From Carallia brachiata (lineage: Eukaryota > Streptophyta > Magnoliopsida > Malpighiales > Rhizophoraceae): a stretch of DNA of 64,000 nucleotides. The stretch is from NCBI GenBank assembly GCA_021464245.1, contig JADCRB010000028.1:1421870-1485869 (forward strand), in the 5' to 3' direction. The notes under the pieces were generated by a model. It did no database searches, was not told the DNA's origin, and saw nothing but the letters and a program-made list of their open reading frames with translations. Made by a program: the position numbers and the translations under genes. Every line of letters begins with the position of its first letter. Within the stretch, counting starts at the first letter, position 1. This document shows positions 1,481-49,180 of the stretch, in pieces.

Positions 1481-1860
1481 CTTTATCTAATTTTTATAAG
1501 ACTTCGAGGTTGAGTGTTATCCTTCAGGTGTTGGGATATGGGTTGTTTTGATGCAAGAGCAGCGACCCATTGCGTTCTTTAATGAGAAGTTGAGTGGAGC
1601 AACACTTAACTACCCAACATATGATAATGAGATGTATGCGTTGGTGACGGCTTTAGAGACTTGGCAACACTACCTTTTGCCTAAGATGTTCATGATCCAC
1701 ACCGATCATAAGTCTTTGAAATACCTTAAAGGTCAAGGTAAGTTGAATAAGTGACATGCTAAGAGGGTGGAGTTCATACAGATGTTTATGTACATGATCA
1801 AGTACAAGCAAAGAAGGGAAGTGTTGTGGCTAATGCATTGTCGCGTAGGTATACCATAAT
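1481..1860 (+). pseudogene. Gypsy-1 RNase H
   Basis: This is the retroelement RNase H that follows RT. The segment where the first catalytic Asp (C-D-A-S) should lie, about 1500-1540, is scrambled by a frameshift. The next frame (1548-1754) holds the recognisable block [20 protein letters not shown], then [11 protein letters not shown] and [14 protein letters not shown] near 1752 ends the frame. The linker ending V-A-N-A-L-S-R-R (about 1824-1850) is the standard end of the domain, where most relatives read V-A-D-A-L-S-R-R. Confidence 0.85.
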
Positions 1861-14137: not shown

Positions 14138-15600
14138 TGTTGGAAAATTCACACCCCATGCATATATTGAGAATTGTTAGAAGTGTGAATTCATGTTTTG
14201 ATGATGAATGTTTTGATGATGAACTATGAACCAATCTAACAAAAGTACAAGTGAATTTCATTTGTATATTCTTCAAATATACAATTGAGGTTCAAGAAGT
14301 CCAAAGAGGTCTACACATGCCATCTCACATGTCCAAGGAAGAGAAAGATCAAATTGGCTTTATTAAGCTACTATCTTAGAAAGACAGCACAAGAGCAAAT
14401 CTGTTTGGGCGAATTCCAAGTATCAAAATGACTCAATTGAGAAATATTTGGGACCTAAAATATATACAGTGTTGCAGGACTATAAGTCTAGTTTCAAATG
14501 AGATTGGTCGTGCAATTTTTGGAGCCATAGAGAAAAACTTATGAATTTTATACCAAGAGGGTGCAAGCTGTCAGGAACCTTTAGTGCACATAGAGTAAAT
14601 TTCAACGGCTGTATAGAAGAACACACAATGAATTTGAATGCAAAAGTTTCTGTGTAGATTCCCTGTTCTATCTACTAATCAACGCAAAAGAAGCACATCA
14701 AAATTCAAAGTCTTCTGCAAGATATTAATGTTCTACTAAAAGTGTGCAGACTGTCTGACGAAACTTTAATGTCTCTATTCCAAAATTTATTTGAATATGG
14801 TATACTCATTAAAAAATAGTCAAATTTGGTGGGTAAGGAGCTCTAACAGTCTACTAAATAACCAAAATGAATCGCAATTTTTCAAGCTGTTTGTACCAAG
14901 TTATAGCCGGTCTACCAGAAGGTGTCAGACAAGAGAATCAATGCAAAGCTGTCAAGAGGAAAACAACAAAACATGTATGTGCAACCCATGGCAACACTCT
15001 AACAAGTTTGTAACCTATCTTGCAGCTACTTAAACATCGCTTGAAGGTGTTTTTACTGATGTGAGAAGTGAAGAAAGTTATATTTAAGCATTGTATAATC
15101 TCTCTCAAGGCAAAAGGCTTTCTTTGCTCTAAGTGCTTTCATTGTAAAATTACTATTTAAGCTAGTAAAGTTCATTTATTGTAATACATTGTGAGAACAG
15201 GTGAGAGCTCTCAAGTGGGACTTGTGAGGATCATCTTGTAAGGAGTTAGGGTTGAACTCTAAGAAGGAAAACCCAAGAGAAAAAGGGAAATTGGTGTTTG
15301 CAAGTGGGACTTGTGCAATAACCGATTTGAAGGCAGGTGCAACGGTGTTTGTGAAGTCTTCTTGTAAACTATACGGTGGTGATTGGTTCGCCAATGGTGC
15401 CCCTATAGTTGAACTCTCAAGAATCTCCATAAGAGGGATTTTGAGAAGACCAAGGACGTAGCCATTTGGTGAACCTTGTAAAATTCGGTATTGTATCTCT
15501 TTCAATCTCTTGTTTACATTCATTTGCAAAAATTTTATTTGAGGATTTCATTTGTGAAGCCTATTCACCCCCACTCTAGGCTTCATCCAAGGGACCAACA
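14138..15600 (+). repeat. SIRE-A 5' LTR
   Basis: This 1463-bp LTR shares its start and end with the other three SIRE LTRs in the window. It differs from its partner at 28944-30405 by roughly 6% in the first ~360 bases (by eye). Open frames inside it (such as 14791-15033 and 15176-15529) recur in the other LTR copies and are not genes. Confidence 0.92.
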
Positions 15601-15602
15601 TT

Positions 15603-15613
15603 TGGTATCAGAG
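15603..15613 (+). other. SIRE-A primer-binding site
   Basis: tggtatcagag follows the LTR after two bases and is complementary to initiator tRNA-Met. Confidence 0.85.
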
Positions 15614-15655
15614 TCTAACCTCACTTGTAAGGCTTAACATCCTTGAGGGATCCCC

Positions 15656-17450
15656 ATAGAATCCTCATCTAATGAAAACAAGAGACCTTTCTTTGATGGT
15701 AGTGATTTTCAATACTATAAACATCATATGGAAAGTTATCTTAAATCGAAGGGAATGAGTGTTTGGTTAAGTGTAGTAAATGAACCATATGTGCCTAAGG
15801 TAGAAGTTGTTGATGATAAGGTAGTGAAAACCTTGAGAGAAAAACCAATAGAAAAATGGGATGAAGAGGACTTTAAGAAAAACCAAATAGATGAAAGAGC
15901 ATATTATTACTTGAAAATGTCCATAGCTAGAAGTGAATATAACACCATCAAACATTGTAAATATGCTAAGGAAATTTGGGATACATTGTGTCTCTCAAAT
16001 GAAGGGACATTAAAAGTTAGAAAAGTTAAACTTGGCATGCTTATGAAAGAATTCGAACTTTTCACTATGAGACTAAATGAATCGGTTAAAAGTGTCTTTG
16101 ATAGACTCATGATTATTGCTAGTAGACTAACTGATCTTGGAAAAGTGTTTGGAAAGGGTGAACTTGTGCAGAAATTAATGAATTCGATTAATGAGGAATA
16201 CAAAATGAAGATTAATGCCATTGAAGAAACTCACAAAGTGGAGGAGCTAACCATGGAAGAGTTGCTTGGGTCCTTGATGACTCATGAGATCAAACTCAAA
16301 AGGAGAAGTGCATTACCACAAGGAGAATCATATTCAAAAAATGTAGCACTCAAAGTTAAAGCCAAGACTCCTTTGAAACCTCAAAAGGATGATGAAAGTG
16401 ATGTTGAAACTAATTCAAACATTGATGATGAAGAACTTGCTCTTTTTGTCAAAAGTTTCAAGAAGATGATGAAATATCCCAGAAGAAGAAAGAACCTCAA
16501 GAAACAAGTGTCCAACAAAAGTGAAGAGGAAGAAGGGCCTCTTTGTTTTGAATGCAACCAACCTGGCCACTTCAAGGTAGATTGTCCCAATCTCAAGAAA
16601 AAGAGAGGTAAGAAAGTATTTCTTGTAGCATGGGGTGAAAATGATGACAAATATGAGAAAGAGCAAGAATCATACATGGCACTCATGACCCTTGATGAAG
16701 ATGATGAAAGTCACAATGAGGTAATAGATCTTTCTTCTTATGAAAAACTTAGAGAAGCTTTTGATGAGTTATTGATCACATTTAAAAGGAAATGTATATA
16801 ATATAAAGAACAAAAGAAAGCACGCGAGAAACTTTTGCTAAAGAAAGTTGAAGTTGTCTTAAAAAAAAGTCTTTTAAAAGAAGAACTAGAAAAGGTTAAA
16901 ATAGCTCATAAATCAACTTGCGGTGAGTTAAATTTAGTTAAACAAGAGCTTGCAACATTCAAAGAGGCCCCTAACATCAAAGAAAATTTACATCTTGCTT
17001 TAGAAAAAGAAGTAGAGGATCTTAAAGAAAAGAATTCAAATATAAAAAAATCATTTTCAAAATCCATATAAAGGAGTGAAAAATTAAATGAGATGTTATC
17101 TTTTCAAAAAATTTTTTTGACAAATTCGGTTTAGACTACCTTGCTAAAAACAGGTCTAATCCCATAAAAGATAAGAAAAATATTGTATCATGTTTTTATT
17201 GTCATAAAGAAGGACACAAATCTCATGATTGTAGACTTAGAAGACCTAATGACCCCAACAAGTCCTACATTAAAAGTTATGTGCCATCTTCTAAAGCTTG
17301 GAAAAAGCCTAGTAAATTCAAACAAGTATGGATGGTAAAAGATTCGCTGAAGAAGAATGATTGTTATAACATTGAAGGACCCAAAAAGAAATGGGTACCA
17401 AAATGTTCTACATCTTGTTTTTTATGTACAAAAGTGCTTGAAGGCAACAT
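15656..17450 (+). pseudogene. SIRE-A gag
   Basis: This is a SIRE-type Gag. SIRE-B begins its gag with ATG-GAA-TCC; here the same codon is ATA (15656), so the start is lost. The body is open from before 15728 to 16801 and holds a UBN2-type capsid region (about 15900-16250), a basic and acidic stretch, and a zinc knuckle CFECNQPGHFKVDC at about 16550-16590. A CAA-to-TAA change at 16799 stops it. Downstream pieces contain a coiled-coil segment (16835-17071) and a second knuckle C-F-Y-C-H-K-E-G-H-K-S-H-D-C (about 17190-17230). Confidence 0.85.
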
Positions 17451-18050
17451 ATTTTAAAGAAGATGTCATTTCGTACCTTGATAGTGGATGTGCTAGGCAT
17501 ATGACTGGAGAAGCATCATTTTTCTCCACACTGAAAAGCAAGGATGGAGGATGTGCTACATTTGGAGACAATGGAAAAAGGCAAAATCATTGGAGTTCGC
17601 ACTATAGGTAACAATGTATCAAGTTTTATTGAGGATGTTGCTTTGGTAAGTGGTTTAAAGCACAACTTAATTAGCATTAGCCAATTGTGTGATAAAGGTT
17701 TTGAGGTATAATTCAAACCCATTACTTGTGAAGTATATGATCCCCATACCAAAGCATTGAGATTTGTAGGAAAAAGAAAAGGAAATATGTATGTGCTTAC
17801 TTTAAATGATTTGTTTTCAAGTGACATACGTTTTGTTTTTTTAAAAGAAGAAGAACCTTGGATTTGGCATAGAAAGCTTAGACATGCTAGCATGAATATC
17901 ATTTCAAAATTATCTAAGCTTGATTTAGTGAGAGGTTTGCCAAAGCTTAATAATGAAAAGAATAAGTTGTGTGATGCATGTGCTAAGGGTAAGCAAATAA
18001 AAACTTTTTTCAAATCAAAAAATTGTGTTTCCACTTCAAAAATTTTGTAA
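17451..18050 (+). pseudogene. SIRE-A protease and pre-integrase region
   Basis: The aspartic protease active site reads Y-L-D-S-G-C-A-R-H-M-T-G at about 17474-17509, where D-S-G is the catalytic motif. A frameshift near 17580 follows. The frame 17757-18050 is the GAG_pre-integrase zinc-binding region: W-H-R-K-L-R-H-A-S (about 17866-17892) and C-D-A-C-A-K-G-K-Q (about 17971-17997). The frame ends at a TAA at 18048. Confidence 0.85.
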
Positions 18051-18681
18051 TTGCTTCATATTGATTTGTTTGGTCCTACTAGAACTAAAAGTTTGGGTGG
18101 AAAGCAATATGGTCTTGTGATTGTTGATGAATATTCTAGATTTACTTAGGTATTTTTTTCTTGTGTGTAAGAATGAAGCTGTGAATGCCTTCATTAATTT
18201 TGGTCAAAAGATTCAAAATGAAAAAGGGATGAAGATCATAAGTATAAGGAGTTTGAAAACCTTGGCTTTTAACAATTTCGTGAAGAAGTTGGGGTATCTC
18301 ACAATTTTTTGGCTCCTAGAACTCCACAACAAAATGGTGTTGTGGAAAGGAAAAATCGGACCTTAGAGGAAATGGTAAGGACTATGCTTTGTAAAAATAC
18401 CTTACCTAACTATTTTTGGGCCAAGGCTATAAATACTTCTTGTTATATTATTAATAGAACTTTAATTCGTCCTATTTTAAACAAAACTCCATATGAATTA
18501 TTTGTAGGAAAAAAGCCTAATATTAGTTATTTTCATCCTTTTGATTGCAAATGTTATCTTTTTAACAATGGAAAAGCCTCTCTTGGAAAATTTGATGCCA
18601 AGAGTGATGAAGGTATTTTCCTAGGTTACTTTCTCACATCTAAGGCTTATAGAGTTTCTAATAAGAGAACTTTGGTAGTTG
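18051..18681 (+). pseudogene. SIRE-A integrase core, interrupted
   Basis: The core starts H-I-D-L-F-G-P-T-R-T (about 18058) with the first catalytic Asp. The block around the second catalytic Asp is damaged: after I-I-S-I-R-S (about 18237) the usual D-H-G-G-E is missing because of a short deletion. The frame 18309-18719 then gives APRTPQQNGVVERKNRTLEE, which includes the catalytic Glu, and later FDAKSDEGIFLGY. SIRE-B cuts the gene at 18686 within V-V-E-E; coding resumes at 26557. Confidence 0.88.
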
Positions 18682-18686
18682 AAGAG
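18682..18686. other. SIRE-B target-site duplication, left copy
   Basis: aagag is repeated exactly at 26552-26556, on the far side of SIRE-B. Confidence 0.92.
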
Positions 18687-20149
18687 TGTTGGAAAATTCA
18701 CACCCCATGCATACATTAAGAAATTGTTACTAAGTGTGAATTCATGTTTTGATGATGAGTGTTTTGATAATGAGCTATGAACCAATCTAACATAAGTACG
18801 AGTGAATTTCATTTGTATGTTCTTCAAGTATACAATTCAGGTTCAAGAAGTCCAAAGAGGTACACATATGCCATCTTACACGTGCATGGAAGTGCATGGA
18901 AGATAAATATCACATTGGGCCTTATTAAGCTACTATCTTATAAAGACAGCATAAGAGCAAATCTGTTTGGACAGATTCCAGGTACTAAACTCACTCACTT
19001 GAGATATATTTTGGGGCTAAAATATATACATTTTGGCAGGACTATAAGTCTAGTTTCAAATGATCTTAGTCGTACAATTTTTGGAGTCCTAGAGAAAAAC
19101 TTATGAATTTTATACCAAGAGGGTGCAAGCTGTCAGAAACCTTCAGTGCACATAGAGTGAATTACAACGGCTGCCTAGAAGAGCACACGACGAATTTGAA
19201 TGTGACATTTTGTGTGTATATTTTTTGTTCTATCTATTAATCAATGCAAAAAGAATCACATCAAAATTCAAAGCCATCTGCAAGATATTACCGTTCTACT
19301 AAAACTGTGCAGACTGCCTAATGGAACTTTAACGTCTGTATTCAAACATTTTTTTGACTATGCTATACTCATTCAAAAATAGTCAAATTTGGTGGGTAGA
19401 GAGATCTGACAGTCTACTAAATAAAACAAAAGGAATCGCAATTTTTCAAGCTATCTGTATCAAGTTATAGCCGTTCAACCAGAAGGTGTCAAACAAGAGA
19501 ATCAATGCAAAGCTGTCAAGAGGGAAACAACAAGGTATGCATGTGCAACCCATGGCAACGGCTCTAACAAGTTGCTAACCTACTTAAACATCACTTGAAG
19601 ATGTTTTACTTGTGAAGAAAAGTTATATTCAACCACCGCACAATCTCTCTCAAGGCAGAAAGGCTTTCTTTACTCTAAGTGCTTTTATTGTAAAACTAGC
19701 ATTCAAGCTAGTAAGTTTCATTTGTATTGTAATACATTGTGAGAATAGGTGAGAGCTCTCAAGTGGGACTTGTGAGGATCATCTTGTAAGGAGTTAGGGT
19801 TGAACTCCAAGAAGGAAAACCTAAAAGAAAAGGGAAAGTGGTGTTGGCAAGTGGGACTTGTGCAACAAGCGTTTTGAAGGCGGACGCAAGGGTGTTTGCG
19901 GAGTCTTCTTGTAAACTGTACGGTGGTGATTGGTGCGTCCAAAGGCACACTATAGTTGAACTCTCAAGAATCTCCAAGAGAGGGATTGTTGAGAAGACCA
20001 AGGACGTAGCCATTTGGTGAACCTTGTAAAAATCAGTATTGTATTTCTTTCAATCTCTTGTTTACATTCATTTGTAGAAATTTTTATTTGAGGATTTCAT
20101 TTGTGAAGCCTATTCACCCCCCCTCTAGGCTTCACCCTAGGGACCAACA
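18687..20149 (+). repeat. SIRE-B 5' LTR
   Basis: This 1463-bp LTR pairs with 25080-26551. Its first 60 bases are identical to those of the 3' LTR. It belongs to the same family as the SIRE-A LTRs but forms a distinct subfamily, with a repeated gtgcatggaa unit near 18886-18901. Confidence 0.92.
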
Positions 20150-20151
20150 TT

Positions 20152-20163
20152 TGGTATCAGAGC
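20152..20163 (+). other. SIRE-B primer-binding site
   Basis: tggtatcagagc lies two bases after the 5' LTR and matches the initiator tRNA-Met 3' end. Confidence 0.88.
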
Positions 20164-20204
20164 TTAACCTCACTTGTAAGGCTTAACATCCTTGAGGGAT
20201 CCCC

Positions 20205-22013
20205 ATGGAATCCTCATCAAATGAAAACAAGAGACCTTTCTTTGATGGTACTGATTTTCAATACTATAAAGATCATATGGAAAGTTATCTTAAATTTAAG
20301 GGGATGAAAGTTTGGCAAAGTGTAGAAGAGGGACCATATGTCCTAGGAAGAAGTTGTTGATGATAAGGGAGTAAAAACCTTGAGCGTAAAACCAATAGAA
20401 AATGGGATGAAGAGGACTATAAGAAAAACCAAATCGATGAAAGAGCATATTATTATTTGAAAACGTCCATAGCTAAAAGTGAATATAACACCATCAAACA
20501 TTGTAAAAATGCTAAGGAAATTTGGAATACATTGTGTCTCTCAAATGAAGGGACATTAAAAGTTAGGAAAGTTAAACTTGGCATGCTTATGAAAGATTTT
20601 GAACTTTTCACTATGAGACCAAATGAATCGGTTAAAAGTGTGTATGATAGACTCATGATTATTGCTAATGGACTAACCGATCTTGGCAAAGTGTTTGGAA
20701 AGGGTGAACTTGTGTAGAAATTAATGAACTCGATGAATGAGGAATACGAAATGAAGATTAATGCCATTGAAGAAACTCACAACGTGGAGGAGCTAACCAT
20801 GGAAGAGTTACTTGGGTCCTTGATGACCCATGAGATCAAACTCAAAAGGAGAAGTGCATTACCACAAGTAGAATCATCCTCAAAAAAAGTAGCACTCAAA
20901 GCTAAAGCCAAGACTCCTTTGAAACATCAAAAGGATGATGAAAGTGATGTTGAAAGTGATTCAAGCATTGATGATGAAGAACTTGCTCTCTTTGTCAAAA
21001 GGTTCAAGAAGATGATGAAATATCCCAAAAGAAGAAGGAACCTCAAGAAACAAGTGTCCAACAAAAGTGAAGAGGAAGAAGGGCCTCTTTGTTTCAAATG
21101 GAATCAACCCGGCCACTTCAAGGTAGATTGTCCCAATCTCAAGAAAAAGAAAGGTAAGAAAGGTAAGAAAGCATTTCTTGTAGGATGGGGTAAAGGTGAT
21201 GATGAAGATGAGAAAGAACAAGAATCTTACATGGCACTCATGGCCCTAGATGATGACGATGAAAGTGACAATGAGGTAATGGATCTTCCCTCTTATGAAG
21301 AACTTAGAGAAGCTTTTGATGATTTATTGGTCACTTTTAAAAGGAAATGTAAACAATATAAAGAGCAAAAGAAAGCATGTGAAAAACTTTTGTTAGAGAA
21401 AGATGAAATTGTATTGGAAAATAGTCTTTTAAAAGAAGAACTTGAAAAGGCTAAATTAGATCATAAATCAACTTGTAGTGAGTTAAATTTTGTTAAACAA
21501 GAGCTTGCAATATCTAAAGAGGCTCCTAACATCAAAGACAATTTACATCATGCTTTGGAAAAAGAAGTTGAGGACCTTAAAGAAAAGAATTCAAATTTAG
21601 AAAAGTCCTTTTCAAAATTCACATTAGGTAGCAATAAGTTAGATGAGATGTTATCTTGTCAAAAGAAATTTTTTAACAAATCCGGTTTGGGATACCTCAC
21701 TAAAAACAAGACTAATCTCATAAAAGAGAAGAAAAATGTTGTATCATGTTTTTATTGTCATAAAAAGGGACACAAATTTCATGATTGTAGACTTAGAAGA
21801 CCTAGTGATCCCAACAAGTCCTACATTAAAGATTATGTGTCATCTTCTAAAGTTTGGACAAAGCCTAATAAATTCAAACAAGTATGGATGGTTAAAGATT
21901 CATTGAAGAAGAATGATTGTTGTAACATTGAAGGACCCAAAAAGATATGGGTACCAAAATATTCTACATCTTGTTTTATAGGTGGAAAAGTGCTTGAAGG
22001 CAGCATATTTTAA
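20205..22013 (+). pseudogene. SIRE-B gag
   Basis: This is a SIRE-type Gag homologous to that of SIRE-A. It starts with an intact ATG at 20205 (M-E-S-S-S-N-E-N-K-R-P-F-F-D-G). A frameshift near 20340 and a CAG-to-TAG change at about 20715 break the front. From 20724 to 22013 it is open for 429 codons: end of the capsid region, basic/acidic stretch, zinc knuckle with its second Cys changed to Trp (C-F-K-W-N-Q-P-G-H-F), a Lys/Glu-rich coiled coil (about 21340-21640), and an intact second knuckle C-F-Y-C-H-K-K-G-H-K-F-H-D-C (about 21746-21790). Confidence 0.88.
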
Positions 22014-22356
22014 AGAAAAATGCCATTTGGTACCTTGATAGTGGATGTGCAAGGCATATGACCGGAGAAGCATCATTTTTGTCCACACTAAAAAGCAAGG
22101 ATGGAAGATGTGTCACGTTTGGAGACAATGGAAAAGGCAAAATCATTGGGGTTGGCACTATAGGTAACAATGTATCAAGTTTTATTGAGGATGTTGCTTT
22201 GGTAAGTGGTTTAAAGCACAACTTAATTAGCATTAGCCTATTGTGTGATAAAGGTTTTGAGGTATTATTCAAACCCATGACTTGTGAAGTATATGATCCT
22301 CATACTAAAGCATTGAGATTTGTAGGAAAAAGAATAAGTTGTGTAATGTATGTGTT
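22014..22356 (+). pseudogene. SIRE-B protease and pre-integrase start
   Basis: The protease motif W-Y-L-D-S-G-C-A-R-H-M-T-G is intact at about 22028-22066, in the -1 frame relative to the end of gag. The frame 22058-22408 continues with F-G-D-N-G-K-G-K-I-I-G-V-G-T and L-K-H-N-L-I-S-I-S. It is cut at 22356, where a foreign LTR fragment begins; the last codons of the open frame belong to that fragment. Confidence 0.85.
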
Positions 22357-23198
22357 TGTTAAGACCCTAAGGTTTCAGTTTTTGGTTTTGATGATTGCTA
22401 AACACTGAGAGTTACTAATATGTTTATTTAAGTGTGTAGTTAAATGATTTAATCAAATAACATCAATTGAAATGGAAGCAATGCTAGCATAAGGCAACTA
22501 TTGATATTGGTCACATTCAGTGTAAGTACTATCCAGCATAGTCAATTTTAAAAGGCTCGTTTGCTCACATGGAGATGAACTAGATAATGTGCGATATACG
22601 GTTAGAAAGATAATTCTGTCTAGTTTCTGAATTCTTAAGAATCATCTCAATTGGATATTTTTGGAGGAAGTTATAGTCTATGAACTGAAAGGTGCTCAAT
22701 CTGTCAAGGCAGACAGGATCAGTCCACTTTAAGAGATGATTGCGACCAAATGGGAAGGAACTAGCTGTTGAGTTTTATATGCATACAAATATAATTCTGT
22801 CTAGTTTCTAAATTGACCAGAATCACGCAAATTGGAGTTCTGTAGAAGGAGATATTGCCAAAATACTAAAGGATGTGCAGCTTGTCCCGTCCAGAAGGAT
22901 CAGTCAACTTCCAGAAGACACAACAACTAGCTAGAGTGGAATCAGACCATGATCTATACATGTATGAAAAGCTCTATGAGTCTACTTTCAAATGGAAGAA
23001 ACGGGATATGATTTGGAGTTACACAGGTAGACTTATGATTGATTCTTTAAGAAGTGTCAGAGCTGTCCAATTGAGAAAGGAAACAAGCTTAAATTGGGTC
23101 TTGGTGATGCTGCTTGAAAGAGAATCCATTTAAATAAGATTATGAGCTAAAAAGGAAACTTTTCAAAGATTGCAAAGCTAATGTTAGCACAAATATGA
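22357..23198 (+). repeat. LTR fragment of another SIRE-like element
   Basis: The segment starts tgttaagaccctaagg, a start typical of SIRE-lineage LTRs, but unlike the tgttggaaaattc LTRs of the host element. It replaces about 95 bp of the integrase region that SIRE-A retains. Three loosely related units of about 180 bp begin near 22610, 22788 and 22973 (around the motif tctgtctagtttct in the first two). No downstream LTR end, primer site or TSD is visible, so it is truncated. The frame 22873-23133 in it has no recognisable domain. Confidence 0.55.
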
Positions 23199-23325
23199 AA
23201 GCTTAGAAATTCTAGCATGAGTATCATTTCATAATCATCTAAAATTGATTTAGTAAGAGGTTTGCCAATGCTTTAGAATTAGTTGTGTGATGCATGCTTA
23301 GATTAAAACAAATACATACTTCATT
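23199..23325 (+). pseudogene. SIRE-B integrase scrap
   Basis: About 127 bases align with SIRE-A 17873-18005, the end of the pre-integrase zinc-binding region (shared blocks gatttagtaagaggtttgcc and ttgtgtgatgcatg), with several changes. Similarity stops near 23325, where foreign DNA begins. Confidence 0.75.
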
Positions 23326-23613
23326 TGTAGGGCAAGATCCCAAGATCAACATCTCACACAATTTCACAAGGTTTTACATTTTCCCCACGTCTTTATCTCA
23401 GCAGTACAAGCAGACTTACCAAAATTGATAAGTACACAATTACAAGACAAATAACACCAACCACTTATTCATACATAGAGTACACCAACCATGACTCATC
23501 CATGTACTATGCACTACAAGACAACATCCCTGCGCATACATACATTCCAATAAAGCTTTGTATGTTGGAATCCATATTCCAACGCCAGAAATTGTCTTCA
23601 GATCTTACCCCTG

Positions 23614-24196
23614 TCAGTCGCTCCTAGGGGGCCTAAGGCATAGCTCTAGATCCATAAAGCCCTTATTGTTCGGCAGGTTGGCAATGTCAATAGTACCAGC
23701 ATTTTCTTGCTGATTGAGATCGCCTAGATGAACAGGAAAGAGACTGAGTGTTTCTCTTTCTCCCTCATGAGAAGAGTTGACCGATCTGCTTCTCACTGGA
23801 GTAATGCTTCCTACTAAGTGAAAATATTCATGGGAGTTTGATCTCTGACCCACATCAAAGATTTCAAATGAAATGGGAAATACCTGGTGGCTGATGTTGG
23901 TTGGGATTTCCTTGAGAAACAATTGTTGTGCTGGTGGAATGAATAACAGGAGGTGCTCTGCCTCTTCTCACACTGCGCCTTCGATTCTGGATCCAGAGTC
24001 TAATGTTACTTGGCTGAATTGGACCATATTGTCTCAACAGTGAGGCAAGTTGAGCAAGTTGGCTTGATGTCGGACGAGCTTCTTCAATGCCATGAAAAAT
24101 ATTTTCCAAGATTTGTAATTGCTCCAGCACCGGTCTCCACCTGGAATTGGAAGAGTCTCCAGTTTCCAGGTTCTAATGGCTTGATGGTGGTCTCAT
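23614..24196 (-). pseudogene. WUSCHEL-related homeobox (WOX) gene, WUS-clade type, inside SIRE-B
   Basis: This is a homeodomain transcription-factor gene of the WUSCHEL family, read on the - strand. Exon 1 (24196-23884) holds a homeodomain starting R-W-R-P-V-L-E-Q-L-Q-I-L-E and ending W-I-Q-N-R-R-R. The 53 residues from R-W to Q-N match the spacing of WUS exactly by hand alignment. Exon 2 (23813-23614) carries the WUS-box E-T-L-S-L-F-P-V-H and ends with an EAR-like D-L-E-L-C-L-R-P. Between them 23883-23814 is a 70-nt sequence with gt and ag ends that joins both exons in frame (phase 1). With the in-frame TAG at codon 8 (24175-24173, perhaps from CAG) ignored, it would encode 170 residues. Unusual: Ile replaces Phe in the W-F-Q-N core. 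The stop before the homeodomain suggests a pseudogene, unless translation starts elsewhere. Confidence 0.75.
23814..23883 (-). other. Predicted 70-nt intron of the WOX-like gene
   Basis: The - strand reads ccaccag/gtatttccc at the donor and ttttcacttag/taggaagc at the acceptor. Splicing joins G to TA as a Val codon and keeps the WUS-box frame. The intron is short but within the plant range. Confidence 0.6.
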
Positions 24197-24695
24197 CTTG
24201 TTGATGTGAAAGGTGAGTGAAAATTTTGAGATTCTGGAAACAACAAAGATGAAAGATGAAAGATAGTTGATCTGAAAAATGAAACTTTGGAAACAAATGA
24301 AAGATAAAAGATGAATGATTCTGGCTTAATGCTTCTCTCCCTCGATTCTCACTTTATGCCTGATGATCCAGAAATTACGCCTGATTCTCTGGCGTAATAA
24401 TTGGCCAACTGTCCTCCACTTTCACCTAACTGTTAGCTACTTTCGTCTGACCGTTCGCGACTTTTCTGACTGTGTGCAACATCTGCACCGTTTCTGATTG
24501 TATACCATGTCAGCTTCCATGTAAGTAATTGACTGTTGAGATGGACTTCCACGTAAGCAATTTGACTGCGGTAATATTTTTGACCTATTCATGAACTATT
24601 ATTAAAGGTAATGATTCACATTGGATTTTTGGTAACATAGTGTCCTAATTTTGAATAGAGACCTTTTGATAGATCATTTTTTTAAAAATAAAATT

Positions 24696-25079
24696 GGGCA
24701 TGTCACACCCCATGCATTAGCATATGCTTGATTGTCTTCATTTCCTCAATTTAATGATTGTATTTGAACTCTACAAGGCCTTCATTTCAAAGTTACGATA
24801 ACTTATATGCCAAATTGTAAATGTGAACTTGTGCTACATGCATACATTAAGGGGGAGTCTTAATCTCTTAACCTAGTTAGTATTCACATTTCTTGTTTCA
24901 ACCATTTTTATTGATGACAAAAAGGGGGAGAAAATTAAGAGAGAGTCATCAAGAAAGAGCATTTCTAGAGGAAGTCTAGATTAAGAAAGAGTCATCAAGA
25001 AAGAGCATTTCTAAAGGAAGCTTAGATTAAGGGGGAGCATCTATTTTAAAGGTTTTGTCATCATCAAAAAGGGGGAGAT
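24696..25079 (+). other. SIRE-B 3' tail with four purine tracts
   Basis: This is the region between the end of pol and the 3' LTR. It has purine tracts of the form aagggggag at 24849-24857, 24919-24934, 25029-25037 and 25066-25078; the last one abuts the LTR and is the likely plus-strand primer. It is shorter than the matching tail of SIRE-A. No env-like frame is present. Confidence 0.8.
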
Positions 25080-26551
25080 TGTTGGAAAATTCACACCCCA
25101 TGCATACATTAAGAAATTGTTACTAAGTGTGAATTCATGTTTTGATGATGAGTGTTTTGATAATGAGCTATGAACCAATCTAACATAAGTACGAGTTAAT
25201 TTCATTTGTATGTTCTTCAAGTATACAATTCAGGTTCAAGACGTCCAAAGAGGTACACATATGCCATCTTACACGTGCATGGAAGTGCATGGAAGATAAA
25301 TATCACATTGGGCCTTATTAAGCTACTATCTTATAAAGACAGCATAAGAGCAAATCTGTTTGGACAGATTCCAGGTACTAAACTCACTCACTTGAGATAT
25401 ATTTTGGGCCTAAAATATATATATTTTGGTAGGACTATAAGTCTAGTTTCAAATGAGCTTGGTCGTGCAATTTTTGGAGTCCTAGAGAAAAACTTATGAA
25501 TTTTATACCAAGAGGGTGCAAGCTGTTAGAAACCTTCAGTGCACATAGAGTGAATTGCAACGGATGCCTAGAAGAGAACACGACGAATTTGAATGTGAAA
25601 TTTTGTGTGTAGATTCTTTTTTCCGTCTATTAATCAATGCAAAAATAATCACATCAAAATTCAAAGCCATCTGCAAGATATTACAGTTCTACTAAAACTG
25701 TGCAGACTGTCTAACGGAACTTTAACGTCTGTATTCAAACATTTATTTGACTATGCTACACTCATTCAAAAATAGTCAAATTTGGTGGGTAGAGAGCTCG
25801 GACAGTCTACTACATAAAAAAAATGGAATCAAAATTTTTCAAGCTCTGTATCAAGTTATAGCTGTTCAACCAGAAGGTGTCAAACAAGAGAATCAATGCA
25901 AAGCTGTCAAGAGGGAAACAACAAGGTATGCATGTGCAACCCATGGCAACGGCTCTAACAAGTTGCTAACCTATCTTGCAGCTACTTAAAAATCACTTGA
26001 AGATGTTTTACTTGTGAAGAAAAGTTATATTCAACCACCGCACAATCTCTCTCAAGGCAAAAAGGCTTTCTTTACTCTAAGTGCTTTTATTGTAAAACTA
26101 GCATTCAAGCTAGTAAGTTTCATTTGTATTGTAATACATTGTGAGAATAGGTGAGAGCTCTCAAGTGGGACTTGTGAGGATCATCTTGTAAGGAGTTAGG
26201 GTTGAACTCCAAGAAGGAAAACCTAAAAGAAAAGGGAAAGTGGTGTTGGAAAGTGGGACTTGTGCAACAAGAGTTTTTAAGGCGGACGAAAGGGTGTTTG
26301 CGGAGTCTTCTTGTAAACTGTACGGTGGTGATTGGTGCGTCCAAAGGCACCCTATAGTTGAACTCTGAAGAATCTCCAAGAGAGGGATTGTTTAGAAGAC
26401 CAAGGACGTAGCCATTTGGTGAACCTTGTAAAAATCAGTATTGTATTTCTTTCAATCTCTTGTTTACATTCGTTTGTAGAAATTTTTATTTGAGGATTTC
26501 ATTTGTGAAGCCTATTCACCCCTCCTCTAGGTTTCACCCTAGGGACCAACA
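25080..26551 (+). repeat. SIRE-B 3' LTR
   Basis: This 1472-bp LTR starts tgttggaaaattcacacccc and ends gggaccaaca. In its first ~400 bases I count about 8 differences from the 5' LTR. Open frames inside it mirror those in the other LTRs. Confidence 0.92.
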
Positions 26552-27736
26552 AAGAGTTAATTCATGTTATTTTTGATGATTCTAATCCCTCTCCAAAGGA
26601 GGAAAAATAATTTGTTAATGATGTAGGTAAACATGAAGGTTACTACTTGGATAAAGAAGATGAAGATATAGAGTTTCTACATTCTAATGAAGAGATATCT
26701 CAAGAGACTTCATATGAGGTGGCTAGAGAAGAAATTCAACAACAAGAACCACCTTGTGAGACAAGGGAACCTCTTGGAAAAAGGGATAGAAGGTATGTGG
26801 AAGGAAATACCATCTTAGGTGATCTTTCCCATGGGGTAAGAACTCGTTCAAGTGTTAACAATATTTGTATGTTTTTATCTTTTATCTCTCAAATCAAACC
26901 TAAAAACATAGATGAAGACCTTCAAGATAGTGATTGGATAATGACCATGCAAGAAGAATTAAATCAACTTGAACGAAGCCAAGTATGGACACTTGTTCTA
27001 AGACCTCTTGATAGATCAATCATAGGGACAAAATGGGTCTTTAGAAATAAAATGGATACGCATGGAACCATAGTGAGAAATAAAGCAAGATTAGTAGCCC
27101 AAGGCTATTGTCAACAAGAAGGCATATAGTATGATGAAACTTATGCTCCAGTTGCCAGACTTGAAGCAATTAGACCTTTGATAGCTTTTACTTGTTACAT
27201 GGACTTTACTTTATATCAAATGGATATCAAAAGTGCTTTCCTAAATGGCTTTATAAATAAAGAAGTTTATGTTGAACAACCTCCCGGTTTTGAGGATGCA
27301 AAATTTCCAAATCATGTTTTCAAAGTTAAAAAGGCTTTATATGGATTCAAACAAGTCCCAAGAGCTTGGTATGAAAGGCTTTCCAATTTTTTTTGGAGAA
27401 AGGCTTTCAAAGAGGTAAGGTTGATACTAATTTATTCATCAAAATTAATGGAAAGGATATATTAGTAGTTCAAATATATGTAGATGATATTATATTTGGT
27501 TTTACTAATGATGACCTTTTTCTAAACTTATGCAAGGTGAATTTGAGATGAGTATGATGGGAGAACTAAACTACTTCCTGGGACTTCAAGTTAAACAAAC
27601 CAAATATAGAACCTTCATCAATCAAGAAAAGTATGTGAAGGACTTGGTTAAGCAGTTTGGAATGAATGAAGTCAAGCCCACCTCAACACCAATGAGCACT
27701 TCCACATGATTAGATAAAGATGAAAAAGGTAAATCC
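26552..27736 (+). pseudogene. SIRE-A end of integrase and reverse transcriptase
   Basis: This continues pol after SIRE-B. 26557 onward gives the C-terminal tail of integrase (I-H-V-I-F-D-D-S-N-P after a frame change) and an acidic linker. The frame 26647-27129 enters RT with D-W-I-M-T-M-Q-E-E-L-N-Q-L-E and KARLVAQGYCQQEGI, then a TAG replaces the Asp codon. It continues Y-D-E-T-Y-A-P-V-A-R-L-E, MDIKSAFLNGFINKEVYVEQ and ALYGFKQVPRAWYERL. A frameshift at an eight-T run near 27390 follows. The catalytic box Y-V-D-D-I-I-F-G is intact at about 27479-27502 in another frame. Confidence 0.9.
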
Positions 27737-28414
27737 GTGAACACTAAATTTTATCGTTCTATGATTGGCTCATTTCTTTATCTAACGGCTAGTAGACTGG
27801 ATATCATGTTTAGTGTGTGTCTTTGTGCTAGATTTCAAGCATCTCCAAAGGAATCTCATCTAGTTGCAGTAAAAAGAATTTTTAGATATTTGAATGACAT
27901 GCCTAATTTAGGATTATGGTATCCTAGAGAATCAAACTTCAAGTTACATGCTTATTCGGATGCTGACTTTGGTTGTTGTAAGATTGATAGAAAAAGCACC
28001 CCCAGGACTTGTCATTTTTTAGGATCAATGCTTATTTCATGGGCAAGCAAAAAGCAAAATAGTGTAGCACTATCTACCACGGAAGCTGAATATGTTGCGA
28101 TAGGTAGTTGTTGTGCCCAAGTTCTATGGATGAGTCAACAACTTATGGATTATGGTCTTAACATGAAAGAGGCTACCATCAAGTGTGACAACACAAGTGC
28201 AATAAACTTGACCAAAAATCCCATCCATCACTCTAGAACAAAGCATATTGATATTAGACATCATTTTATTAGAGACCATATTCAAAGATGTGATATTGTG
28301 CTTGAATTTATAGATAATAAAAATCAAGTGGCAGACATTTTCACTAAGCCACTAGATCAAGATCAATTTTGTCATCTAAGAAGAGAATTAGGCATGTCAC
28401 ACCCCATGCATTAG
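27737..28414 (+). pseudogene. SIRE-A RNase H
   Basis: This is the C-terminal domain of copia pol, open for 225 codons up to its natural stop. It begins Y-R-S-M-I-G-S-F-L-Y-L-T. Catalytic blocks are visible: A-Y-S-D-A-D-F-G (about 27951), ALSTTEAEYVAI (about 28070), C-D-N-T-S-A-I (about 28184), and the end N-Q-V-A-D-I-F-T-K-P-L. The domain itself looks intact, but it depends on a polyprotein that is broken upstream. Confidence 0.88.
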
Positions 28415-28943
28415 CATACGCTTGAATGTCTTTATTTGCTTAATCTTGCATGAATGTTTGTGATTGTGTCTTGCCATCTTATGGCATAACAAAGTGGCCA
28501 AACTTTCAATGAAATTACTTCAAATTAATGAAGCAAATACATTGGAAACCATTTTCTATGAACATTGAACATGACACAAAAACATCAAATCTATTTTTGC
28601 TTTAATGAAACCTTTTGAAATTGAGGCATTATCTTATAAGATCTAGTACATTCTTTGCTCTAGCTTAGTGGCTGCATTTGTACTCTACAAAGTCCACATC
28701 TCAAAGTTGTTATAACTTATATGCCTAGTTGTAAATGCGAACTTGTGCTACATGCATACAATAAGGGGGAGTCTCAATCTCTTAACCAAGTTAGCATTCA
28801 CATTTTTGGTTTCAACCACTTTATTGATGACAAAAAGGGGCAGTAAATTAAGAGAGAGTAAAAGAAAGAGCATTTCTAGTGGTAGCTTAGATTAAGGAGG
28901 AGCATCTATTTAAAGGTTTTGTCATCATAAAAAATGGAGAGAT
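28415..28943 (+). other. SIRE-A 3' tail with eroded purine tracts
   Basis: This 529-bp segment lies between the pol stop codon and the 3' LTR. Four purine tracts sit at 28763-28771, 28832-28845, 28893-28902 and 28929-28943, in the same order as in SIRE-B. Three have base changes that interrupt the G-run. It has no gene. Confidence 0.8.
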
Positions 28944-30405
28944 TGTTGGAAAATTCACACCCCATGCATATATTGAGAAATTGTTAGAAGTGTGAATTCA
29001 TGTTTTGATGATGAATGTTTCGATGATTAGCTATGAACCTCTCTAACAAAAGTACAAGTGAATTTCATTTGTATGTTCTTCAAGTATACAATTGAGGTTC
29101 AAGAAGTCCAAAGACGTCTACACATGCCATCTCACACGTGCAATGAAGAGAAAGATCAAATTGGCCTTACTAAGCTACTATCTTAGAAAGACAGCACAAG
29201 AGCAAATCTGTTTGGGCATATTCCAGGTATTAAACACACTCAATTGAGAAATATTTTGGGCCTAAACTATATGCAGTTTTGTAGGACTATAAGTCTAGTT
29301 TCAAACGAGATTGGTAGTGCAATTTTTTGGAGCCCTAGAGAAGAACTTATGAATTTTATACCAAGAGGGTGCAAGCTGTCAGGAACCTTTAGTGCATATA
29401 GAGTAAATTGCCTAGAAGAGCACACAACGAATTTGAATGACAAATTTTGTGTGTAGATTTCTTGTTCTGTCTACTAATAATGCAAAAAGAAGCACATCAA
29501 AATTCAAAGTCTTCTTCAAGATATTAACATTCTATTAAAAGTGTGCAGACTGTCTGATGGAACTTTAACGTCTCTATTCTAACATTTATTTGACTATGCT
29601 GTACTCATTCAAAAATAGTCAAATTTGGTGGGTAAAGAGCTCTGATAGTTTACTAAATAACCAAAAAGAAATGTCAAATTTTCAAGCTATCTGCACCAAG
29701 TTATAACCGTTCTACTAGAAGGTGTAAGACAAGAGAATCAATGCAAAGCTGTCAAGAGGAAAACAACAAAGCATGCATGTGCAACCCATAACACTGGCTC
29801 TAACAAGTTGCTAACCTATCTTGCAACTATTTAAACATCACTTGAAGGTGTTTTTACTGATGTGAGAAGTGAAGAAAGTTATATTCAAGCATTGTATAAT
29901 CTCTCTCAAGGTAAAAGGCTTTCTTTGCTCTAAATGCTTCCATTGTAAAACTAGCATTCAAGCTAGTAAATTTCATTTTGTATTGTAATACATTGTGAGA
30001 ATAGGTGAGAGCTCCTAAGTGGGACTTGTGAGGATCATCTTGTAAGGAGTTAGGGTTGAACTCCCAGAAGGAAAATCCAAGAGAAAAAGGAAAATTGGTA
30101 TTGGCAAGTGGGACTTGTGCAATAACCGATTTGAAGGCAGGTGCAAAGGTGTCTGTGGAGTCTTCTTGTAAACTGTACGGTGGTGATTGATGCACCCAAA
30201 GGCACCCCTATAGTTGAACTCTCAAGAATCTCCATGAGAGGGATTGTTGAGAAGACCAAGGACATAGCCATTGGTAAACCTTGTAAAATTCGGTATTGTA
30301 TCTCTTTCAATCTCTTGTTTACATTCATTTGCAAAAATTTTATCTGAAGATTTCATTTGTGAAGCCTATTTACCCGCCCTCTAGCCTTCATCCAAGGGAC
30401 CAACA
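28944..30405 (+). repeat. SIRE-A 3' LTR
   Basis: This 1462-bp LTR pairs with 14138-15600 and is followed by the TSD atata at 30406-30410, where Gypsy-2 LTR sequence resumes. Confidence 0.92.
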
Positions 30406-40849: not shown

Positions 40850-43800
40850 TTCGTCTAGCCATTGCAACTTAAGCTAAAGAGTGGGCTACACCATTGAAAT
40901 CTTCAGAAAGGTAATCAAACTGGATACTTTTGGAGCTATCAGAAAGAGCTCAAACATCCTTGGTAATTAAATCCTCTACAGTCTGTCGCTGATCTCTATT
41001 CCTTATAGCTTGTAAAGCCATACAACAATATATTTCAATAGTCATCCGTGGCAAAGACATGAAAATCGCTTACTGCATTGCTTCACGAATGGCCAATAAT
41101 TCTCCAACCACCACTGAAAAATTACCACCAAGTAGCCGAGCAAAACGAAAAATAGGTTGTCCCATTGTATTTCTACACATGCCGCCAATTTCTGTCTTCC
41201 CTCCCCCACAAGTTGCATCAGAATTTATTTTGACCACCCCAGCCTCTGGCACTTGCCACTTGCTTCTTGTCATACATGCTACCAAAGATTGAGGAGGAGA
41301 AAGTGATTGAATCCCCTGATATTCTACAAGTAGAGTTAAAGCTGTTGAAATAACTTTTTCAGGCTACCTCAGACTCTTCTCATGCACAAAACAATTTTGT
41401 GAGTGCCAGGTAGCCCACAAAATCATACAAACCAATTAAGTTGCTTCCCTGTTTTCACATTCTATTGTACTTGAGAAGCATTCAGTAAAACTCTCTCATG
41501 TTCTTATTATCCCCAAAGGGCTAATGAACCATATCTAAACTACTCGATGATAGGTTAGGAGAGCATGACAAACCGATTACTCTTCGACACCATAGAATGG
41601 ATAGACTAGATCCACATTCAACCCTCTAACCACCAATTTAGTATTGACTGACAATAATTCTTTGATACGCCTCTAAATTTGATGTTTTACTTTTGGTGGG
41701 ATTTTTAGAGGCCACAAGTTCTTCCAAACTGCAGGTTGATTCCTAGCAAATGAGCCCACTCGACTATTTTCCTTCATCATTTTGGCCAAAGCATATCCCA
41801 ACTTTACCGTGTACTCCCCCATTCTACTGAAGTGCCAGACAAGCTTATCTAGAGGGGTCTGATAACTTAGCAGGATTTTGAGAATTAGTTCACTCTTTTT
41901 AGGCATGAAGATACTCTGAACTACCCCCGTTCTCTAGCTCTTAGTATTCGAATCTATCAATGAAGCCACATAGGTTGAACAGTTCGGTCCTCTTGATGAG
42001 AGTATCTTGAAATCGTTCTACTATGGGATCTTTGAATCACCCCAAATATGTATAGATTCCCCAATTCTTACTTGCCACCGTACACCCTTCAAGAGCAATG
42101 TGCATGTCTCCAAGATACTACGCCAAGCATAGCTGGGATTCATCCCCAATCTAGCTTCTGTAAAAGTCAACTCATGAAAATAACGTGCCTTATAAATTTT
42201 GGAGATCAAAGTGTTAAGATTTATCAAGATTTGCCAAGCCTGTTTAGCTAGCATGGCAAAGTTGAAGTCCCTAAAATCTTTGATACACAACCAACCTACT
42301 AGCTTAGAGTTCGTCATCCTCTTGCACGCTAGCCAATGAAATTTTTGGGATTTGTCTGAAGAGCCCCTCCAGAACATGTTAACCAGCCTCGTTTTCTCAT
42401 TACACAAATTAACAGGAAACAAAAAGTAACTCATTAGGTAAGTGGGTATCACCTGCAAGACAAATTTAATTAAAACCTCTTTTCTAGTACAAGACCGTCT
42501 CCTTTCCTCCCAACTTGATACTCGTTTCTTAATTCTGTCAAGCACCTGTTTAAAGGCTGTCTTTTTTGAATAACTGATGCTCATCGGGAGTCCCAATTAT
42601 TTGTTATGGGGTTGAACGAATCGGACATTCTCTTTTGACATCCTCTTGGACATTGCAATTGAATGATATTTCTGTTTTTGCTAGATTTACTTGTTGGCCG
42701 AAAGCTTTCTCATAAAGCTGCAAAATATCTTTAAGCCTATTAGCTTCCTGTATTGTAGCACGAGAGAAGAGCAAACTATCATCAACAAAAAATAAATGGG
42801 AGATTTCTGGGGCACGGCAACAAACCTTAACTCCATGAATGTGGCCTCTCCTTTTTGCTTCATTCATTAAAGAAGATAAACCCTTTGCACAAAGAAGAAA
42901 TAGATAAGGAGAGATGGGACCCCCTTGTCTTAGACCTCTTGAAGGGTAAAATACATTCCTTGGCTTCAAATTGACCACCAAAGAGTAAGAAACAAGGTGA
43001 TACACTGCATAACAAGTCGAACCCATACATCTACAAAACCCATCCTCAGCATAATGTCTTCCAAATACTCTCTACCCTATCATAGGCCTTTCTCATATCA
43101 AGTTTTAGTGCCATATACCCTTTCTTTCCTTGATATTTGTGCTTTATGCTATGAAAAATCTCAAAGTCAACAAGAGCATTATTTGTGATGAGTCTACCTA
43201 GGACAAATCACATAAACTTATGGGTCTAAGTTCAGAACATCGAGTAAACTTGGGAATCAAATAAATGTGGGTTCGGTTAAAAGAGGACGAATCATCATTA
43301 GAATTCAAAATGCCTAATACCTTTGTAACTACCACATCCCCAACAATTTTTGGTAAAAGAAAGTAGGCATTCCATCTGGACTGGGTGACTTACTCGGGCG
43401 CATTTGAGTTATGGCCATGAAAACCCTGTCTCTTGTAAAAATTTCGGTAAGTTGCTCATTTATTTGAATTGTGCCCTTTAGCTGAACAGCATGGAGTGCA
43501 TCTTGTTTACCCACGCAACCTTTAACTAGAACAGATTAGCATAGTGTTCCATCGTAACATGACCAATCTCTTGATCTATGGTGCACTCCCTTCTATCTTT
43601 CTCTTTTATTAAACGGATCCAATTCCGCTTCTTCCGTGCTATGGCTTTTAAGTGGAAGAAAGCGGTGTTATGATCCTCTTCTACTAGCCACTAAACCCTT
43701 GAGCGTTGACATCTCATAATCTCTTCTTTTTTTAACAAGTCATCTAGCTGTGTTTGAAGGCCTGAAAGTGTTTGTAAATTCTTCTCTTAGTTCCATTCTT

Positions 43801-48347: not shown

Positions 48348-49180
48348 TCACCTAAGATGATAACGTTCCATATCAATTGCAATTTCAGATGTCCGCTGGC
48401 CTACCCTTTTGATCATCTCGCTCCCTGGAGGTTTATACTGATGCAATGGAGTGGAATTGGTGTCAAGGTAATGGAGGACTATCACCGTAACAAGAGAAGA
48501 AATAACCATGGGTATGGGACCAAAGAACCATAACAACAAGTTAAGAGCGAAATAAAGTGCTCTGAGTCCAAGTGACCAAAATTCACTTCCTCTTAGAACG
48601 GCTGCCTCCACATATTTCACAGGTATGTCACTGTCCGGCGTGCTTATCAGATAATTTGCATGGACAAAGTGCCTTGTTGATTGAACAAAGCAGGAAAAAG
48701 CAAGGAGAAAACAGATCAGGAGGATCATGTACTTGATGGACGTAGTAGATGGCCTTGTGTCACCATAGATCAATTCTCTCCCCAATGGATTATTAGAAGA
48801 GCCTCCCAGCCACGCTCCTATGAGAGAGCTGAGGGTCAAGGAAACTGAAGCTAAGAAAGTTGCTGCTGAGATATTGGATGAAATCACAGTTAGAGCCATG
48901 TTAACATCCCTATTATCTGCCTGCAATACCAACACATGTTAAAATAATAATGATAATTAATTTAAACTAGGTTGAGAGTTAAATCATCGAACCAGAGAGA
49001 GAGGTCACTGACCTGCATAATTCTCTCAACCCAAGCTATTTTGTCATTGTTTTCAAAGCCAATAACTGTGGTGTGAGGCTGATTCAGATATCTGTATAGA
49101 AGGTACAGGTGGTAAGCAAACATGACCACCAAGCCGACTGGGACTAACACCAAATCAAGGTACTCCTTCTGAAAGGCCAT
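48348..49180 (-). CDS. DUF599 membrane protein, copy 1 (two exons)
   Basis: This is a predicted integral membrane protein of the plant DUF599 family; its function is unknown. Exon 1 is 49180-49013 (56 codons from ATG), the intron is 49012-48921 (92 nt, gtcagtg to ttgcag), and exon 2 is 48920-48348, giving 246 residues, the usual family length. Hydrophobic segments lie at about residues 8-30, 66-95, 118-138, 174-188 and 190-208. The conserved Y-G-D-T-R-P-S is at 108-114 and W-F-F-G-P at 187-191. The N-terminus starts MAFQKEYLDLVLVPVG, typical of the family. The frame is intact and the splice is in phase 0. A paralogue lies 1.7 kb upstream in the same orientation, so the two arose by tandem duplication. 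Confidence 0.88.
48921..49012 (-). other. Intron of DUF599 copy 1
   Basis: Donor atgcag/gtcagtg and acceptor ggtattgcag/gcagat join codons in phase 0. Confidence 0.85.

What the first reader, a model, noticed from the sequence alone, without database searches (positions are those of the whole stretch)
23326..24695. A WUSCHEL-type homeobox gene sits inside a young SIRE-like retrotransposon
Seen: the - strand of this block encodes, in order, a homeodomain whose residue spacing matches WUS exactly from R-W to Q-N, a canonical WUS-box (T-L-S-L-F-P) and a C-terminal L-E-L-C-L. Known: that combination defines WUS-clade WOX regulators of plant stem cells. Inference: a retrotransposon has acquired, or been invaded by, a meristem-regulator gene. 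If the composite transposed after capture, it could spread WOX copies or antisense RNA.
Basis: partly seen in the sequence, partly recalled or inferred. Interest (0 to 1): 0.88.

Follow-up and report, generated by a model that had tools for sequence, protein, structure and literature searches.

The report
WUSCHEL-like gene carried by jumping genes
In this plant genome a gene resembling the stem-cell master switch WUSCHEL travels inside mobile DNA elements: the copy seen here is a damaged passenger of one such family, about half of the sampled sister copies keep it readable, and a second, different family carries a related and often intact version.

Summary
Window 24196-23614 (-) encodes a WUS-type homeodomain (61 residues ungapped to WUSCHEL, E 2e-9), a TLSLFP WUS-box and a C-terminal LELCL, antisense inside a pol-less Sirevirus (Ty1/copia) element B (18687-26551, TSD AAGAG, LTRs 97% identical), nested in an older Sirevirus A. 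The window's own frame is broken (early stop, 2-nt deletion). The composite moved after capture: the integrase/WOX junction occurs at 46 genomic sites including the window (backward control 0), flanks match B at 29 sampled loci, and three further loci have their own target duplications (one with a mismatch). In 15 of 30 loci the WOX frame is an unbroken, intronless 195 codons. A second, Ty3/gypsy family carries a related sense WUS-type gene of 207 residues: intact in 12 of 14 copies picked by integrase DNA, decayed in many divergent copies. Both TE-borne versions group apart from five host WOX genes (97/97), on a long branch. WOX amplification by LTR elements is already reported for two Vigna species (meeting report); a homeobox in two retrotransposon superfamilies, one copia and antisense, did not turn up in my searches. 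Host species unnamed; expression untested.

The parts
14138..30405 (+). Older Sirevirus element A (host of B), with LTRs 14138-15600 and 28944-30405 and TSD ATATA
   Evidence: LTR identity 92.1%, K2P 0.084; TSD; copia gag, SH3-like and RVT_2 domains above cut-off
18687..26551 (+). WOX-bearing, pol-less Sirevirus element B, inserted in A
   Evidence: LTRs 97.0% identical without gaps, K2P 0.031; TSD AAGAG at 18682-18686 and 26552-26556
18687..20149 (+). 5' LTR of B, followed by TGGTATCAGAGC (primer binding site by recall)
20724..22013 (+). gag reading frame of B (zinc-knuckle part)
   Evidence: zf-CCHC 19.2 bits, below the Pfam cut-off of 20.8; 89% DNA identity to A
22358..23196 (+). 839-nt insert with internal repeats and a weak LTR likeness, shared at least in part with 28 of 29 sister loci
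   Evidence: 65-nt stretch 66-70% like the LTRs, E 0.002-0.007; sister loci
23197..23326 (+). Remnant of the pre-integrase/integrase region; left junction of the WOX block at its end
   Evidence: alignment to A 17872-18006, 78.7%; junction at 46 sites
23327..24670 (-). WOX block (antisense to the element)
   Evidence: genome search; junction alignments
23614..24196 (-). WUS-type reading frame, broken in this copy by an early stop and a 2-nt deletion
23963..24145 (-). Homeodomain (61 residues)
23734..23751 (-). WUS-box TLSLFP
23635..23649 (-). EAR-like LELCL
24671..25079 (+). End of RNase H homology, linker and four AGGGGGAG polypurine tracts, the last followed by AT/TG
25080..26551 (+). 3' LTR of B

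Best explanation
The window holds a decayed member of a non-autonomous Sirevirus family (here F1) in which the integrase core, reverse transcriptase and most of RNase H are replaced by an intronless WUS-type homeobox gene in antisense orientation. Shown: the composite structure, recurrence of the composite and its junction across the genome, separate insertions with their own target duplications, an open WOX frame in about half of the sampled copies, and a gypsy family (F2) with a related sense gene. Inferred: F1 RNA is packaged and copied in trans by proteins of autonomous Sireviruses; the gene came from a processed WUS transcript (no intron, WUS-length homeodomain, LELxL tail), and F1 and F2 got it from one captured source, perhaps F2 first; its protein, if made, acts as a WUS-like repressor. 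The window copy can hardly make a full protein; transcription from the LTR would read it as antisense RNA.
For: Composite and TSDs. Recurrence. Intronless 195-codon frame in 15 of 30 loci, one more of 192 codons, one open past the end of the stretch. F2: RT, RNase H, integrase, then sense WOX; homeodomain against WUSCHEL E 2.9e-18; TSD at 2 of 3 copies with both ends seen, LTR-part K2P 0.011-0.014; WOX downstream in 14 of 14 integrase-picked loci, frame intact in 12. Kinship of F1 and F2: group of 97/97 against five host WOX genes, AtWUS and MtSTF; tails align beyond the homeodomain, 0 of 5000 shuffles as good, 55 of 5000 with both motifs masked. Constraint in F2: homeodomain pN/pS 0.31 pooled, 0.40 by distinct changes, p about 1e-4.
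Against: No RNA, small-RNA or protein data. F1 pN/pS 0.59 allows weak or no selection, and 13 of 30 F1 loci are broken. F2 copies in the selection test were found by their homeodomain score, which lowers pN; the tail, outside that score, gives 0.67, p 0.05. Of 17 divergent F2 loci whose tails were read, by my count 7 keep both TLxLFP and LELxL in an open tail and at least 5 are cut by a stop or frameshift; L040 has a changed WUS-box. F1 sits on a branch of 1.89 changes per site, so its place is unsure. One of three F2 copies showed no matching TSD, and at a fourth the 5' end was not found. F1 and F2 lack the FYWFQNH signature of the WUS clade (F1 IRLWIQNR, F2 FYWFQNR). Which autonomous element moves F1 was not tested.
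Confidence: 0.85

Rival explanations
1. Two independent captures: F1 took its gene from a host WUS transcript on its own, and likeness to F2 reflects only common WUS descent.
For: Only 26-29 of 61 homeodomain residues shared with F2; nucleotide similarity weak (56% over 170 nt, E 8e-5); long F1 branch.
Against: F1 shares only 18-23 of 60-61 residues with any of five host WOX genes; F1+F2 group 97/97; tails align beyond the motifs.
Confidence: 0.25
2. Inert passenger: the WOX block is filler in a pol-less element, open only because many sampled copies are recent.
For: F1 pN/pS 0.59; 13 of 30 F1 loci broken; antisense orientation; decay of many divergent F2 copies.
Against: The F1 homeodomain differs from AtWUS at 41 of 61 sites, yet a 195-codon frame survives; neutral drift from WUS to that distance left no stop in the homeodomain in 7% of 3000 simulations, suggestive only. 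F2 shows constraint, with the bias noted.
Confidence: 0.4
3. Insertion of a gene-carrying DNA transposon (Pack-MULE, Helitron) into one B element, later amplified by LTR transposition.
For: A 6-nt direct repeat TCATTT near both edges of the block, about what chance gives in such windows.
Against: No inverted repeat longer than 6 nt at the edges; no clear Helitron ends by eye; pol is missing exactly there.
Confidence: 0.06
4. Assembly artefact or one-off chimera.
For: None found; the window has no N.
Against: Same junction at 46 sites on many contigs; TSDs at four loci including the window, one of them 4 of 5.
Confidence: 0.01

Closest known systems
WOX amplification by LTR elements in Vigna marina and V. 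riukiuensis (PMC10714607, passages read; its source preprint 10.1101/2022.03.28.486085 not seen)
   Same: Many WOX copies (over 1000 in V. riukiuensis) mostly flanked by identical LTRs with target duplications; F2 fits, and the genome could be one of these species.
   Different: The passages name neither superfamily, orientation nor a copia family; F1 is a separate Sirevirus family with a distant WOX version. The host of this window is not identified.
Bs1 of maize (from PMC13317346, passages read)
   Same: LTR element carrying host gene pieces.
   Different: Bs1 carries fragments of three other genes, none full-length by that passage; here a transcription-factor frame with all three WUS motifs recurs in many copies.
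Additional ORFs of plant LTR elements, e.g. Grande, RIRE2, Retand (PMC7264820 part 1 of 3 read; PMC11963269 passages)
   Same: Extra ORF near the 3' end, often antisense; the Retand TRP28 domain may bind DNA.
   Different: 'homeo' and 'WUS' occur 0 times in PMC11963269; F1 lost pol, F2 is sense. PMC7264820 says transduced genes usually lie in sense, unlike F1.
AlkB-bearing Gypsy elements of orchids and the 121-genome domain screen (PMC9289625, section 12 and passages read)
   Same: A host-derived domain fixed in a plant gypsy family, as in F2.
   Different: The screen lists 15 extra domains passing its filter, all in gypsy, none in copia; 'homeo' occurs 0 times in its main text.
Sirevirus gene capture in maize (cited in PMC13317346, passage read)
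   Same: Sireviruses among elements that carry captured gene sequences.
   Different: No WOX gene mentioned in the passage.

Membership tests
Sirevirus (Ty1/copia) | Several AGGGGGAG tracts before the 3' LTR | tested here: met
   Four in B at 24850, 24923, 25030, 25070, one exact tract in A at 28764; shuffles of the window mean 0.8, largest 4; criterion from PMC2829016 passages
Sirevirus (Ty1/copia) | Last tract followed by AT, then TG of the LTR | tested here: met
   25070-25077, AT, LTR from 25080
Sirevirus (Ty1/copia) | Copia-type gag and RT | tested here: met
   In A: Retrotran_gag_2 81.9 bits, RVT_2 40.4 bits; B lacks RT and is placed by its likeness to A
Sirevirus (Ty1/copia) | CGG-CCG repeated motifs in the LTR | not tested
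   Named in PMC2829016; not examined here
WUS-clade WOX proteins | WOX-type homeodomain | tested here: met
   F1; F2
WUS-clade WOX proteins | WUS-box TLxLFP | tested here: met
   criterion from PMC2584047 and PMC9968055 passages
WUS-clade WOX proteins | Outermost C-terminal LELxL and one extra homeodomain residue (WUS proper) | tested here: met
   LELCL in the window; ungapped to WUS where STENOFOLIA has a one-residue gap; criterion from PMC2584047 passage
WUS-clade WOX proteins | FYWFQNH signature | tested here: not met
   F1 has IRLWIQNR, F2 FYWFQNR (criterion); so a divergent derivative, not an orthologue
WUS-clade WOX proteins | Stem-cell or repressor function | not testable with these tools
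   Needs expression
LTR-amplified WOX of Vigna | Copies bounded by near-identical LTRs with TSDs | tested here: met
   F2: K2P 0.011-0.014 over 648-665 nt of LTR in three copies, TSD in 2 of these 3
LTR-amplified WOX of Vigna | Host is V. marina or V. riukiuensis | tested here: inconclusive
   Genome unnamed; a legume test with a leghaemoglobin query did not complete

The most novel reading that the evidence does not exclude
A WUSCHEL-derived gene has become a working part of retrotransposons: fixed first in a gypsy family, then passed to a copia Sirevirus, so that a stem-cell regulator moved between two retrotransposon superfamilies. Its protein could favour the elements, for instance by binding their LTRs in meristem cells or by enlarging the stem-cell pool from which the germ line comes.
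Probability: 0.25. Interest if true: 0.93.

Novelty: new variant of a known kind. Interest (0 to 1): 0.72.

Why it matters
Plant LTR elements often pick up gene pieces, but a readable developmental regulator kept in many copies, and in two superfamilies, is unusual: a screen of 121 angiosperm genomes found no extra domain passing its filter in copia elements (PMC9289625, section 12). If the protein is made, dozens or more near-identical WUS-like repressors sit in one genome, and one can ask directly whether elements use a meristem regulator for their own spread. If it is not made, the copies are a possible reservoir of antisense and small RNA against WUS-like sequence, and a trap for annotation, since WOX family counts would be inflated.

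Tried and rejected
Intron reading: a 70-nt GT-AG intron (23883-23814) fitted the window alone; rejected because in sister copies the stretch is coding and in frame.

Searches that found nothing: WOX protein against 5.8 billion proteins, 96 candidates, none at E 0.01; viral contigs, 67 stretches, and genome contigs, 282 stretches, none confirmed. These collections seem to lack plants, so the negatives say little. Papers: WUSCHEL with Sirevirus, 0 papers; further searches, seen as listings. PMC3726574 held none of six terms such as homeo, intron, antisense. Structure of the homeodomain stretch without an alignment: pLDDT 55, three helices; 23 PDB matches at E up to 10, none at 0.001; uninformative.

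Conserved-position test on the window homeodomain: 17 of 20 identities with WUS fall on the 43 WUS=STF positions, p 0.07; not used. Pack-MULE and Helitron readings: no inverted repeat longer than 6 nt at the edges. The 22358-23196 insert holds only short frames.

Caveats on counts: genome searches score only the best candidates, so copy numbers are lower bounds. L016/L017, L021/L022 and L026/L027/L028 are 99.9-100% identical over the compared stretch and may each be one locus in different haplotypes; L025/L029 are 99.0% identical. In one search I dropped L017, L022, L027, L028 and L029 before the F1 selection test (25 of 30 kept). About 10 of 29 sister loci lack most of 23116-23281, including much of the integrase remnant.

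Full report
What is in the window. On the minus strand of 24196-23614 lies a WUS-type reading frame. Its homeodomain (24145-23963) reaches 31.5 bits in Pfam and aligns to Arabidopsis WUSCHEL over 61 residues without a gap, E 2.1e-9, with 20 of 61 residues identical. A WUS-box TLSLFP and a C-terminal LELCL follow in another frame. None of 20,000 dinucleotide shuffles gave both motifs and a stop in order in one frame. As it stands the frame is broken: a stop follows seven codons, and a 2-nt deletion separates the homeodomain from the tail.

Where it lies. Two Sirevirus elements are nested. A (14138-30405) has LTRs of 92.1% identity, K2P 0.084, and TSD ATATA. B (18687-26551) sits inside A with LTRs of 97.0% identity, K2P 0.031, and TSD AAGAG. 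At recalled rates of 1.3e-8 or 7e-9 per site and year B would be about 1.2 or 2.2 million years old; the rate for this plant is unknown. B carries four AGGGGGAG tracts before its 3' LTR, the last followed by AT/TG, the hallmark given for Sireviruses (PMC2829016, passages). B keeps part of gag, an integrase-region remnant and the end of RNase H; between the latter two lies the 1.34-kb WOX block, antisense to the element. Integrase core, reverse transcriptase and most of RNase H are missing.

The composite moved. The genome (337.5 Mb, 164 contigs, unnamed) was first reached. The WOX block gave 114 candidates; of 40 scored loci one is the window, 20 cover the block almost whole at 90-93%, 2 cover a large part, and 17 match its first 912 nt at 95-97% plus all or part of its end at 75-88%. 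Among 29 such loci (L010-L038) all match B on the 3' side and 28 on the 5' side. The 34-nt integrase/WOX junction occurs at 46 places with up to 3 mismatches, the window included, and the backward control at 0. Three further loci have their own flanking duplications: ATTAC on both sides, CTCCT on both sides, and TAAAG/TTAAG with one mismatch. So the family, here F1, transposed after capture. It lacks pol and must be moved in trans (inference).

The gene in F1. Of 30 loci including the window, 15 have an unbroken 195-codon frame without intron, one has 192 codons, one runs open past the end of the stretch, and 13 are broken. Four of the 15 may be haplotype duplicates. The early stop of the window occurs in 2 of 30, the window and L015. 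pN/pS over 25 copies is 0.59. WUS-clade genes have two to four exons in sunflower (PMC9968055, passage), so absence of an intron points to a processed transcript as source (inference).

A second family. The homeodomain search returned 150 scored of 1347 candidates; 81 of these rows lie at 49.4-49.6 bits (my transcription). Four fetched examples (L039-L042) share flanks at 91-98% with each other and, with the window, only one 45-nt match. They are gypsy-type elements (F2): reverse transcriptase, RNase H, integrase, a poly(A)-rich spacer, and then a sense WUS-type frame of 207 residues with homeodomain, WUS-box TLPLFP and LELHL tail; three of the four encode the same frame, while L040 has a changed WUS-box. 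The homeodomain matches WUSCHEL at E 2.9e-18. F2 LTRs differ by K2P 0.011-0.014 over 648-665 nt in three copies; TSDs are perfect in two of the three (GTGGG, TGTCC), absent at C86, and at a fourth copy (C25) the 5' end was not found. An integrase piece of F2 gave 990 candidates, and all 40 scored loci were 99-100% identical. In 14 of 14 loci chosen this way the WOX frame follows, intact in 12. Divergent copies are worse: of 17 whose tails were read, by my count 7 keep both tail motifs in an open tail and at least 5 are cut. Among 21 F2 copies pN/pS is 0.31 in the homeodomain and 0.81 in the linker; by distinct changes 0.40 (p about 1e-4) and 0.64 (p 0.03), and 0.67 in the tail of 19 copies (p 0.05). 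The divergent copies were found by homeodomain score, so the first value is biased low.

Kinship. In a tree of 14 homeodomains F1 and F2 form one group apart from five host WOX genes, AtWUS and MtSTF (97/97); F1 arises on a branch of 1.89 changes per site. F1 shares 26-29 of 61 residues with F2 and 18-23 of 60-61 with host WOX. Their tails also align: 0 of 5000 shuffles as good, 55 of 5000 after masking both motifs. The reading I favour is one captured WUS gene that reached two superfamilies; two captures remain possible.

What is known. A meeting report (PMC10714607, passages) states that Vigna marina and V. riukiuensis hold many WOX genes, over 1000 in the latter, mostly surrounded by identical LTRs with TSDs. 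F2 fits this, and the genome may be one of them, but the test I tried did not complete. The screen in PMC9289625 (section 12 read) reports 15 extra domains in LTR elements of 121 angiosperms, all in gypsy; 'homeo' occurs 0 times in its main text. I found no report of a WOX gene in a Sirevirus, in a library that holds only open-licence papers.

What it does. In the window, probably nothing as a protein. LTR transcription would yield RNA antisense to the WOX frame (inference). Elsewhere the F2 frame, and open F1 frames, could make small WUS-like proteins with both repressor motifs. Whether they are made is the open question.

Noticed in passing
L039-L042, L045, L046, L049-L063, L077-L090 (G000): Gypsy-type family carrying a sense WUS-type gene between integrase and 3' LTR; its integrase piece is 99-100% identical at all 40 scored loci of 990 candidates, suggesting a recent burst.
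   Followed up: yes
window 48348-48935 and 50918-51529, minus strand: Two neighbouring DUF599 frames (159.8 and 135.4 bits; 65.6% similar DNA), probably tandem duplicates of a host gene.
   Followed up: no
window 42604-43026, minus strand, and 976-1551, plus strand: Reverse transcriptase remnants (RVT_1) of other retroelements.
   Followed up: no
window 63047-64000, 54618-55584, 52880-53334: Tandem repeat arrays with about 73-80% identity between units.
   Followed up: no
window 22358-23196: 839-nt insert with internal repeats and faint LTR likeness, carried along at least in part at 28 of 29 F1 loci.
   Followed up: partly
L016 and L021 (G000 C128, 5.7 kb apart); L017 and L022 (C49): Two F1 WOX blocks close together, 99.3% identical, on two contigs that look like haplotypes of one locus.
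   Followed up: partly
L031-L038 against L010-L030: F1 falls into subfamilies differing upstream of the WOX frame (about 24239-24347 in window terms), at several homeodomain residues, and by loss of 23116-23281 in about 10 of 29 loci.
   Followed up: partly
L047 and L048 (G000 C90, C65): Two host WUS-like genes, homeodomains 84% and 80% identical to AtWUS.
   Followed up: no
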